A stretch of DNA of 39,325 bases from Oscillospiraceae bacterium (lineage in GTDB: Bacteria; Bacillota; Clostridia; UMGS1810). Every line of letters begins with the position of its first letter. The stretch's first letter is position 1. The DNA lies in the NCBI GenBank assembly GCA_015068565.1, contig SVKG01000002.1, forward strand, positions 1 to 39,325, given 5' to 3'. The notes beneath the pieces were generated by a model. That model was not told where the DNA came from. It ran no database searches and saw nothing but the letters and a program-made list of their open reading frames with translations. Below are positions 10,077 through 12,944 of the stretch, one piece after another. A program made the position numbers and the translations under genes.

Positions 10077-10934
10077 ATGAGAATCAAAAGCCGAATTGCT
10101 ATACTTTTGTTTGTGGCCTCTGTTATAGCAGTATATAATTTTGTAAGCATCCGCACATACGAAGATGTGATAAACACCAACCTGTGCACCGAGGTAAAGT
10201 TGCCGATAGTTATGTATCACGCTTTTTTAAAAGACACATCACGGCACGGGAAGTTTATTATATCCCCCGAGCAGTTTGAAGAGGATATTAAATATATAAA
10301 AGACAAAGGCTACACGCCCATACACATCAAAGAACTTATCACCTATGTAAACGCCGAGGGCAATCTCCCCGAAAAACCTATACTGATAACAATTGACGAC
10401 GGCTATTATAACAACTACATTTATGCTTTTCCGATACTTAAACAGTATGGCGTGAAAGCAGTAATTTCGCCCATTATGAAATTCAGCGAACTATACAGTC
10501 AGCACGACGAAAACAATGCCTACTACTCTCACATTACTTTTTCCCAAGCCAGGGAGATGGCCGCAACGGGGCTGGTTGAATTTCAGAATCATTCCTACGA
10601 TATGCACAAGGAAAGCGGTGAACGGCACGGGGTCAGAAAAACAGATTCGGAATCTGTGGAAGAATACAGAAAAACCGTTTATGCCGACCTTTACAGGGCA
10701 CATAATATGATAAAAGAAAATATAGGATGCACACCCGCTGCTTTTACTTTTCCATTCGGCTCATATAACCCTTATATCGACCAGGTAATAGACCAAATGG
10801 GCTACTCCGTAACACTGTCGTGCGAAAGCGGAATCAACTCGATATCCAAGGGTTGCTCCCTTAAAAACCTTAAACGCTTTAACCGTCCACACGGCATAAG
10901 TACAACAGAGTTCTTCGCAAAAATACTTGAATAA
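10077..10934 (+). CDS. Polysaccharide deacetylase (NodB homology domain) with N-terminal TM anchor
   Basis: LPIVMYHAF, ILITIDDGYYNN, QNHSYDMH, AFTFPFGSYNP motifs. Confidence 0.92.
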   Translation: MRIKSRIAILLFVASVIAVYNFVSIRTYEDVINTNLCTEVKLPIVMYHAFLKDTSRHGKFIISPEQFEEDIKYIKDKGYTPIHIKELITYVNAEGNLPEKPILITIDDGYYNNYIYAFPILKQYGVKAVISPIMKFSELYSQHDENNAYYSHITFSQAREMAATGLVEFQNHSYDMHKESGERHGVRKTDSESVEEYRKTVYADLYRAHNMIKENIGCTPAAFTFPFGSYNPYIDQVIDQMGYSVTLSCESGINSISKGCSLKNLKRFNRPHGISTTEFFAKILE

Positions 10935-10993: not shown

Positions 10994-11008
10994 CGTTAAT
11001 GTTCGTAA

Positions 11009-11089
11009 GCGAGTGTGCTGGAACTGGCAGACAGGCACGTTTGAGGGGCGTGTGTTTATGACGTACGGGTTCAAGTCCCGTCACTCGCA
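11009..11089 (+). tRNA. tRNA-Leu (anticodon GAG)
   Basis: Acceptor gcgagtg/cactcgc; anticodon stem cacgt/gcgtg with loop ttGAGgg; T arm acggg-ttcaagt-cccgt; long variable arm (class II). Confidence 0.94.
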
Positions 11090-11167
11090 TTAAAAAGCCT
11101 TAAAGGATTTTTCCTTTAAGGCTTTTTTGTGTGTAATTAGAGGGACTTGAACCCTAAGAGGGCACGA
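11075..11167 (+). repeat. Composite repeat unit 1: tRNA 3' tail + hairpin + gtgtaatt + inverted T-arm
   Basis: gtcccgtcactcgcat (11075-11090) and gggacttgaaccctaagagggcacga (11142-11167) recur exactly in unit 2. Confidence 0.85.
11095..11128 (+). terminator. Rho-independent terminator after tRNA-Leu
   Basis: aagccttaaagga-tttt-tcctttaaggctt plus T run. Confidence 0.85.
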
Positions 11168-11204
11168 GCCGTTAAGCACAATAATCCAGCGGATTGTTGT
11201 GCAG

Positions 11205-11287
11205 GTGAGTGGTGCGCAGACGGGTACTGTGCGAAGCACGGTCGTCAAGCAGGAAAGACGCGAAGCGGATTTGTCCCGTCACTCGCA
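11205..11287 (+). pseudogene. tRNA-like segment, possible degenerate tRNA-Leu
   Basis: gtgagtg (11205-11211) can pair with cactcgc (11280-11286); 3' end identical to that of tRNA-Leu; no intact anticodon or T arm. Confidence 0.4.
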
Positions 11288-11367
11288 TAAAAAGACTTGA
11301 AGATTCAATATCTTCAAGTCTTTTTTATTGTGTAATTTGAGGGGACTTGAACCCTAAGAGGGCACGA
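11273..11367 (+). repeat. Composite repeat unit 2
   Basis: gtcccgtcactcgcat (11273-11288), hairpin aagacttgaagat...atcttcaagtctt, gggacttgaaccctaagagggcacga (11342-11367). Confidence 0.85.
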
Positions 11368-11436
11368 TATGTCCAAGGTCAGTTTCACCATAATTTCAAT
11401 AGGGAAAATTGCCATAATACTAATTGGTGATGTGTT

Positions 11437-11661
11437 ATGAATAAATTAAAGGAACTTCGTATCAAAAAGGGTTATACACAAATCAAAATGCAGATGCTCA
11501 CAGGCATTGACCAGAGTGATTATTCCAAACTCGAAAACGGCAAAAGATATTTTGCTTTTGAACAATGTCGGAAACTTGCAATAGCACTTGATACAAGTAT
11601 GGACTATCTTGCAGATTTAACCGATGAAGAAAATCCGTATCCACGAAAACAATCTAAATAA
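11437..11661 (+). CDS. Small XRE-family helix-turn-helix transcriptional regulator
   Basis: LKELRIKKGYTQIKMQMLTGIDQSDYSKLENGKR HTH_3 pattern, 74 aa. Confidence 0.9.
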   Translation: MNKLKELRIKKGYTQIKMQMLTGIDQSDYSKLENGKRYFAFEQCRKLAIALDTSMDYLADLTDEENPYPRKQSK

Positions 11662-11708: not shown

Positions 11709-12944
11709 TTATCTTTTTCTTTCCAGATAAGAGACCGCAGTGAGTATTCCCGTCATTATACAGCACGACACCATTGAACTGCCACCGTAACTTACAAACG
11801 GGAGTGTGATGCCCGTTAAGGGTATAAGTTTTATAACGCCCCCTACAATGATAAAAGTCTGAAAAGCAAAACTTATGACGAGTCCGAAAGTAAGCGCCTT
11901 TAAAAACTCATTTTTCGCTTTTAAACCTATTTTAAACCCACGATAGGAATATATAAAATATATCATAATAATGGCTATACCGGTGAAAATACCCATTTCC
12001 TCGCATATTGCGGCGAAGATAAAGTCCGAATGGACTTCGGGTATCAAATGCGGTGTGCCGTTACCAAGCCCTGTACCGAAATACCCGCCGGAGGTTATTG
12101 CAAAGAGTGACTGGGTAATCTGAAATCCCTTATTGGTGGCGTCCACCCAGGGGTCTAACCATGTGACGACTCTTGACTTAATATGGTCAGTAAGGAAATA
12201 GCCCCCCGCAGCACCTAAAAAAGCAAGTGCACCGTTTATAAGCATAAGCCGTTTTGAAGTATCGTACAAAAACATCATAACAAAGTACGTGAGGAAAAAC
12301 ACTATTGCAGTACCCCACTCCTTCTGTATAAGCATAAAGCCAAGGCAAACATACACAAATATATTTGCGACAATATCTTTTTTTGGAATGTTCCATATCT
12401 CGCCGGACAAAAGTTTATGTTTTGATTCGTCCATTGTAAAAAAACAAGCCAGGGCAAATACATAGGTTATCTTAATAAATTCCGAGGGCTGAACTGTTCT
12501 TCCGCCGATACTTATCCAGTTTTTAGAGCCGCCCCGGGTTTCTCCGAAAACAAGTGTTGCTATAAAGAGACCTATGGAGATTATGACGTACAAGATAAGA
12601 AGTTTATCCCAATGTTTAAAAAGTCTTACCGCAAGGTATCCGGCAAGAAACACTATAATTCCTGTACAAAACCAGAAAACCTGATTATATCCGTATTTTG
12701 TGTCTATCCGAAGCAACATAATAATACCTATACTGATAAGTATAGACACCATAAGAAACAGGTACACATCGCCCATATCAAGCCAATACATAAGAGCGTA
12801 TATACCAATATTTACCGCAAGAATAATGGCTCCGGCGTACAGAATGTTTACATCATACGGCGTCTTATAAAAAAACAACAACACAAACCCTATGAGATTA
12901 AGCAACAGAAAATAAAGAACAGGTCGTATTCTTAATCTGCTCAT
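11709..12944 (-). CDS. SEDS family protein (FtsW/RodA/SpoVE)
   Basis: Multi-TM; NWISIGGRTVQPSEFIKI, FQITQSLFAITSGGYFGTGLGNG, SDFIFAAICEEMG, LPFVSYGGSS. Confidence 0.95.
   Translation of the reverse strand: MSRLRIRPVLYFLLLNLIGFVLLFFYKTPYDVNILYAGAIILAVNIGIYALMYWLDMGDVYLFLMVSILISIGIIMLLRIDTKYGYNQVFWFCTGIIVFLAGYLAVRLFKHWDKLLILYVIISIGLFIATLVFGETRGGSKNWISIGGRTVQPSEFIKITYVFALACFFTMDESKHKLLSGEIWNIPKKDIVANIFVYVCLGFMLIQKEWGTAIVFFLTYFVMMFLYDTSKRLMLINGALAFLGAAGGYFLTDHIKSRVVTWLDPWVDATNKGFQITQSLFAITSGGYFGTGLGNGTPHLIPEVHSDFIFAAICEEMGIFTGIAIIMIYFIYSYRGFKIGLKAKNEFLKALTFGLVISFAFQTFIIVGGVIKLIPLTGITLPFVSYGGSSMVSCCIMTGILTAVSYLERKR

What the first reader, a model, noticed from the sequence alone, without database searches (positions are those of the whole stretch)
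11075..11367. Composite tRNA-tail / hairpin / inverted-T-arm unit present twice downstream of tRNA-Leu
A unit of about 94 bp occurs at 11075-11167 and 11273-11367. Each starts with the same 16 bp of tRNA-Leu 3' end (gtcccgtcactcgcat). A hairpin with T run follows, then gtgtaatt. Each ends with the same 26 bp gggacttgaaccctaagagggcacga. Units are offset by 198-200 bp with unrelated sequence between. This looks like a tRNA-derived repeat or modular element rather than simple spacer DNA, and I do not recognise it as a named family.
Basis: seen in the sequence. Interest (0 to 1): 0.72.

Follow-up and report, generated by a model that had tools for sequence, protein, structure and literature searches.

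The report
Clostridial tRNA-linked repeat, antisense T-arm
Behind a leucine tRNA gene lies a roughly 150-base structured RNA element that begins with an antisense copy of the tRNA's T-arm and ends with a copy of the tRNA's tail; it is the Clostridia counterpart of the unexplained tRNA-linked repeats of E. coli and sits behind many different tRNA genes in gut Clostridia.

Summary
The repeats are real, but the unit was framed wrongly. The "unrelated" sequence between them is a conserved structured core. The element runs 11142-11288: an antisense copy of the tRNA T-arm, four hairpins (P2-P5), then a direct copy of the tRNA tail from position 59. A terminator follows each tRNA tail; 11342-11367 is a truncated second start. 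A covariance model finds the element in 34 of 146 sampled genomes of the class, up to 15 matches each. Of 111 fetched copies, 64 start 31-58 nt behind a complete tRNA gene (24 anticodons); others follow tmRNA or truncated tRNA ends. The start matches its own tRNA (51-63) at 12.44 of 13 positions (shuffled 9.85); the tail copy begins at tRNA 58|59; 38 of 41 base pairs covary. This is the anatomy of E. coli tRNA-linked repeats (TLRs; rtT RNA is one); E. coli lysQ and lysV TLRs match it part by part. The core sequence is unrelated, so it is a new variant of a known kind. TLR function is unknown. I propose a read-through RNA, released at its tRNA-like end, whose antisense start pairs with its own tRNA or with itself. 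Transcription, pairing and mobility are untested.

The parts
11009..11089 (+). tRNA-Leu(GAG), the gene the element is linked to; CCA not encoded
   Evidence: ARAGORN; Rfam tRNA 44.2 bits
11092..11127 (+). terminator-like hairpin with T run behind the tRNA (T1)
   Evidence: 16-bp perfect inverted repeat, 4-nt loop
11142..11288 (+). the whole element: TLR-type structured RNA
   Evidence: covariance model match 11142-11277, 144.4 bits, plus the rest of the tRNA-tail copy; folding z-score -3.14
11142..11154 (+). antisense T-arm: reverse complement of tRNA 51-63; its first 5 nt can also pair with 11273-11277 (P1)
   Evidence: 13/13 complementary to the neighbouring tRNA
11152..11162 (+). P2 hairpin CCCT-AAG-AGGG
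   Evidence: covariation, helix 1
11163..11211 (+). P3, long hairpin with a GA/GA internal loop
   Evidence: covariation, helices 2-4
11213..11251 (+). P4 hairpin with GGT bulge, best conserved sequence
   Evidence: covariation, helices 5-7; invariant columns
11254..11272 (+). P5 hairpin with C-GAA-G triloop
   Evidence: covariation, helices 8-9; triloops
11273..11288 (+). direct copy of the tRNA tail from position 59 on
   Evidence: 16-nt identity; boundary at tRNA 58|59 across 64 loci
11289..11325 (+). terminator-like hairpin behind the element (T2), a different sequence from T1
   Evidence: 16-bp perfect inverted repeat
11342..11367 (+). truncated start of a further copy (antisense T-arm plus P2)
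   Evidence: 26/26 identical to 11142-11167; extension 26 nt

Best explanation
It is a Clostridia version of a tRNA-linked repeat (TLR): a dispersed structured-RNA element behind tRNA and tmRNA genes. Shown: its position, its covarying fold on the tRNA-sense strand, its antisense copy of cognate tRNA 51-63, its direct copy of the tRNA tail from 59, and its presence behind many tRNA species with both ends matched to each. Inferred: it is transcribed at a low level by read-through of T1 and is cut free by tRNA-maturation enzymes that recognise the copied tail. Inferred: its 5' segment has two alternative partners, its own tail copy plus P2, or the T-arm of the neighbouring tRNA or precursor, so each RNA is addressed to one tRNA. 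Copies appear to spread within genomes and to be lost again by recombination between repeats.
For: Fold: 93.0% of cells paired, 38 of 41 pairs changed on both sides, covariation 0.512 against 0.04-0.08 for slid partners; G.T 194 against A.C 18 cells. Link: 64 of 111 copies 31-58 nt behind a complete tRNA gene, 24 anticodons; tmRNA confirmed by Rfam in L127 and L158. Ends: 12.44/13 cognate against 9.85 shuffled; boundary 58|59; tRNA position 57 covaries with a nucleotide unpaired in the fold, Fisher 1.8e-16; in 21 loci with unrelated terminators the copy stays tRNA-identical and identity falls after the tRNA end. Spread: cores 89-96% identical behind Leu, Ser and Arg tRNAs of one genome, each with its own matched ends. 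Known kind: E. coli lysQ and lysV TLRs have the same order of parts; rrn TLR RNAs are made by read-through of T1 and processed (PMC8144298).
Against: No transcript data for any Clostridia copy. The core does not match E. coli TLR sequence (no RtT match). E. coli lysT, lysW, lysY, lysZ, argQ and argZ copies have only 5-6 nt of antisense, so the antisense is not universal in TLRs. Within-genome spread could instead be gene conversion of the cores. The matched ends could partly be relics of how copies arise.
Confidence: 0.6

Rival explanations
1. Intron-like, RNA-guided exon exchange: the 13-nt segment is an internal guide. Five nucleotides hold tail positions 59-63 and eight hold tRNA 51-58, lining up 58|59 so that tRNA 1-58 is joined to the second tail copy. 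The product is the same tRNA, so the element is harmless.
For: The guide spans exactly 51-63 across the 58|59 boundary; the tail copy is kept fit as a tRNA end even where the terminators are unrelated; position 57 covaries.
Against: No known ribozyme family matches; position 58 pairs as plain A-T in 60 of 64, without the wobble typical of group I splice sites; some divergent members have a much reduced P4; E. coli copies without the guide.
Confidence: 0.17
2. Integrase scar: a very small integrated element. Direct repeats of the tRNA tail are attachment-site cores left by a tRNA-targeting recombinase, and the antisense T-arm is a recombinase site. The RNA has no role.
For: Repeats that run from the T-loop to the tRNA end are typical of tRNA-targeting integrases (general knowledge); presence or absence differs among close species.
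Against: Strong covariation with G.T bias needs a folded RNA or strand; T1 is not shared between loci with 96% identical cores; the overlap sequence 5' of position 59 is not shared.
Confidence: 0.12
3. Single-stranded DNA hairpin element, moved like REP sequences or IS200/IS605: the fold acts in DNA.
For: C-GNA-G triloops in P5 (50 of 87 triloops), known as very stable DNA mini-hairpins (general knowledge).
Against: The 194:18 bias of G.T over A.C fits RNA better; no Y1 transposase test was made.
Confidence: 0.05
4. Simple tandem duplication or assembly error at one tRNA gene.
For: Direct repeats with partly duplicated terminators.
Against: Over 100 related copies in independent genomes, covariation, and the same anatomy in finished E. 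coli K-12.
Confidence: 0.01

Closest known systems
tRNA-linked repeats (TLRs) of E. coli, above all the lysQ and lysV copies (PMC8144298, citing Rudd 1999 and Egan and Landy 1978)
   Same: Behind a tRNA on the same strand, often behind a terminator; 3' end copies the tRNA tail from about position 59; antisense T-arm at the start (exact, tRNA 49-61, in lysQ and lysV); hairpin-rich core; second terminator.
   Different: Core sequence unrelated; in Clostridia nearly all copies sampled carry the antisense T-arm, in E. coli only some; Clostridia copies also follow tmRNA; no rRNA-linked copy seen here.
RtT RNA (Rfam RF00391), the tyrT/tyrV repeats of E. coli, themselves TLRs
   Same: Four repeats of one model in K-12, closed by a stem between antisense start and tail copy, imperfect antisense of tRNA-Tyr, similar hairpin layout.
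   Different: No RtT match in the window; antisense shifted towards the acceptor strand and mismatched at 57-58.
Group I introns with an internal guide sequence
   Same: A guide that pairs across an exon boundary (working resemblance only).
   Different: No group I match in Rfam, no recognisable catalytic core, no wobble at the junction.
Theta ribozymes next to phage tRNAs (PMC10879173)
   Same: Ribozymes associated with tRNAs (title and abstract only read).
   Different: HDV-like and phage-borne; here a nested multi-helix fold on chromosomes, one hit in 2.9 million viral contigs.

Membership tests
[quoted passage not shown]
   Positions 59-76 at 0.88-1.00 identity in 64 loci; 16 nt in the window, whose tRNA gene lacks CCA
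tRNA-linked repeats (TLR) | Lies in a tRNA or rRNA operon, same strand, singly or in tandem | tested here: met
   64 of 111 directly behind a tRNA gene; tandem copies in G003 C90 and G012 C88
tRNA-linked repeats (TLR) | Sequence homology to E. coli TLR cores | tested here: not met
   Clostridia model scores at most 5.3 bits on the tyrT locus. So it is filed as TLR-type by anatomy, not by descent
tRNA-linked repeats (TLR) | Transcribed and processed RNA (shown for rrn TLRs) | not testable with these tools
   no transcript data
RtT RNA (RF00391) | Score at or above the Rfam gathering cut-off | tested here: not met
   no match in the window at E up to 5 nor in 20 loci at gathering; E. coli positive control scores 133-138 bits
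Group I intron | Conserved catalytic core recognised by Rfam | tested here: not met
Group I intron | Self-splicing activity | not testable with these tools
   needs RNA in vitro
IS110 (bridge RNA) element | Cognate IS110 recombinase in carrier genomes | tested here: not met
   PF01548 absent from G025, G124, G003, G008, G101
Reverse-transcriptase retroelement | Reverse transcriptase in carrier genomes | tested here: not met
   PF00078 absent from G025, G124, G003, G008, G101

The most novel reading that the evidence does not exclude
TLRs are a widespread class of RNA-guided elements: the antisense segment recognises the T-arm of one particular tRNA or tmRNA, and the copied tail is used as a real tRNA 3' end by exchange or repair at 58|59. 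The same guide would explain how copies settle behind new tRNA genes with matched ends.
Probability: 0.2. Interest if true: 0.92.

Novelty: new variant of a known kind. Interest (0 to 1): 0.62.

Why it matters
TLRs have been known in E. coli since 1978 and had no known function as of 2021 (PMC8144298). A second, far more diverse set in Clostridia gives what E. coli could not: over 100 sequences, a covariation-supported fold, an exact boundary at tRNA 58|59, and an antisense T-arm that covaries with the cognate tRNA at a nucleotide unpaired in the element's own fold. These turn an old curiosity into specific predictions that can be tested in E. coli K-12.

Tried and rejected
Known ribozyme or Rfam family: none at E up to 5 on the window beyond the tRNA and weak chance matches far below cut-off, chiefly miRNA models; only tRNA, tmRNA and one Gut-1 RNA at gathering in 20 loci. 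Phage-borne element: one hit in viral contigs, at what looks like an island end. IS110 or reverse transcriptase as the mover: absent from element-rich genomes. Own promoter before the element: no positional signal beyond the T run of T1. Mobile circle that carries T1: terminators differ where cores are 96% identical. Integron attC: set aside by eye, R-box ends missing. A literature search for rtT with tyrT found nothing; the link came from fetching the E. coli locus and then PMC8144298.

Full report
Observation. tRNA-Leu(GAG) is 11009-11089. The stretch between the two 26-mers is not unrelated: BLASTN of 11000-11400 against 60 relatives matched 11142-11281 at dozens of dispersed places, which on inspection mostly lie behind tRNA genes. 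The natural unit is therefore 11142-11288, and 11342-11367 is the truncated start of another.

Anatomy. From 5' to 3': a 13-nt antisense T-arm; P2, a hairpin that reuses the antisense CCC; P3, a long stem with a GA/GA internal loop; P4, with a GGT bulge and the best conserved sequence; P5, often with a C-GNA-G triloop; then a direct copy of the tRNA tail. The first five nucleotides can close the fold by pairing with the start of the tail copy (P1). A terminator-like hairpin follows the tRNA (T1) and the element (T2). This consensus was drawn by comparison; the minimum-energy fold of the single window sequence keeps P2, the P3 top hairpin, P4 and P5 but pairs the tail copy elsewhere.

Family. 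A covariance model (R1) finds the element in 34 of 146 genomes drawn from the class, up to 15 matches each, in 14 of 17 genomes of the family, and in 2 others of 299 genomes sampled across the phylum. Twenty loci scanned against Rfam gave only tRNA, tmRNA and one unrelated Gut-1 RNA.

Structure test. On 118 aligned matches 93.0% of cells pair and 38 of 41 pairs show changes on both sides; the covariation score is 0.512 against 0.04-0.08 for slid partners. The alignment was fitted to the model and so leans towards it, but the contrast is large. G.T cells outnumber A.C cells 194 to 18, which points to folding of the tRNA-sense strand as RNA.

Link to the tRNA. Of 111 copies, 64 lie 31-58 nt behind a complete tRNA gene of 24 anticodons. 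The rest follow tmRNA, truncated tRNA ends at island borders, earlier tandem copies or contig ends, and about ten have no tRNA remnant (classed by eye). The antisense segment covers tRNA 51-63 and matches its own tRNA at 12.44 of 13 positions, against 9.85 for shuffled partners. Much of that could follow from pairing inside the element, so the key test is tRNA position 57, opposite a nucleotide left unpaired by the fold: 33 G-C, 27 A-T, 1 G-T, 0 A-C, and 3 G-A (Fisher on the first four 1.8e-16). Related loci are not fully independent, but 13 genomes hold both states of position 57 and follow the rule within themselves except for two G-A cells. Direct identity with the tRNA starts sharply at 58|59. 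In 21 loci with unrelated terminators it drops to 0.38 just past the tRNA end.

Spread and loss. In genome G003 the elements behind tRNA-Leu, -Ser and -Arg share 89-96% of the core, yet each has the ends of its own tRNA, and their first terminators are unrelated. Either copies move and acquire matched ends, or cores are homogenised by gene conversion. Within the window's genus, tRNA-Arg(CCG) has the element in one species and not in two others; tRNA-Val has it in two, and only a lone antisense remnant in the window's own genome. Tandem copies about 200 bp apart occur (G003 C90, G012 C88).

What it is. E. coli tRNA-linked repeats are described as sharing 18-19 bp at their 3' end with the upstream tRNA or rRNA; 22 exist in K-12 and they had no known function (PMC8144298). 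I fetched K-12 loci. The tyrT and tyrV repeats (RtT RNA) end with tRNA-Tyr from about position 59 and begin with an imperfect antisense of it. lysQ and lysV have tRNA, T1, an exact 13-nt antisense of tRNA-Lys 49-61, a core, the 59-76 copy and the terminator again: the same anatomy as the window. lysT, lysW, lysY, lysZ, argQ and argZ keep only 5-6 nt of exact antisense. The cores of the two groups do not match by sequence. I therefore file the window element as a TLR-type variant by anatomy, without claiming common descent.

How it works. E. coli rrn TLR RNAs are made by read-through of T1 and processed, and the authors propose that the tail copy is a processing signal (PMC8144298). I carry that over by inference: a low-level read-through RNA trimmed at its tRNA-like end. 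The antisense T-arm adds alternative pairing with the cognate tRNA; that paper does not use the words 'inverted' or 'complementary to', and I found no description of the antisense elsewhere, but the original TLR papers were not available to me. Exon exchange at 58|59 is the boldest reading: it fits the geometry, has no direct evidence, and E. coli copies without the antisense argue against it as a general rule.

Limits. No transcripts, mostly draft genomes, related sequences, rough E-values, and only part of the E. coli TLRs examined. In the window, 10077-10934 is a polysaccharide deacetylase, 11437-11661 an HTH protein, and 11709-12944 (-) an FtsW/RodA-like protein; none seems part of the element.

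Noticed in passing
L124 758-896, L163 174-317, L050, L125, L149, L150, L178, L307: Elements lie directly behind truncated tRNA or tmRNA 3' ends that look like the far borders of integrated islands, so islands often integrate just upstream of these elements.
   Followed up: partly
L308 (G000 C67), behind tRNA-Val: A lone terminator plus antisense T-arm (AGGGCTCGAAC) without core: a likely remnant after loss of an element that two sister species still have.
   Followed up: partly
L320, L080, L077, L083: Divergent members with a much reduced P4 that lack the GGGTAC motif still keep the antisense T-arm (less well in L083) and the tail copy, so P4 may be dispensable or variable.
   Followed up: partly
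L172 and L177 (tRNA-Lys), L166 (tRNA-Met), E. coli tyrT repeats (L323): A shared deviation in the antisense, GA opposite tRNA 57-58 (GAGAAC instead of TCGAAC), recurs in separate lineages.
   Followed up: no
L170 50-121: A Gut-1 RNA (RF01706, 70.5 bits) lies upstream of the tRNA-Ser gene that carries an element; probably unrelated.
   Followed up: no
L114 402-607: An element whose P2 loop carries an insert of roughly 65 nt.
   Followed up: no
L126 and L129 (G025 C33): Two elements 98% identical in the core, about 3.4 kb apart; only one has a tRNA in front, as if an insertion had split a tandem array.
   Followed up: no
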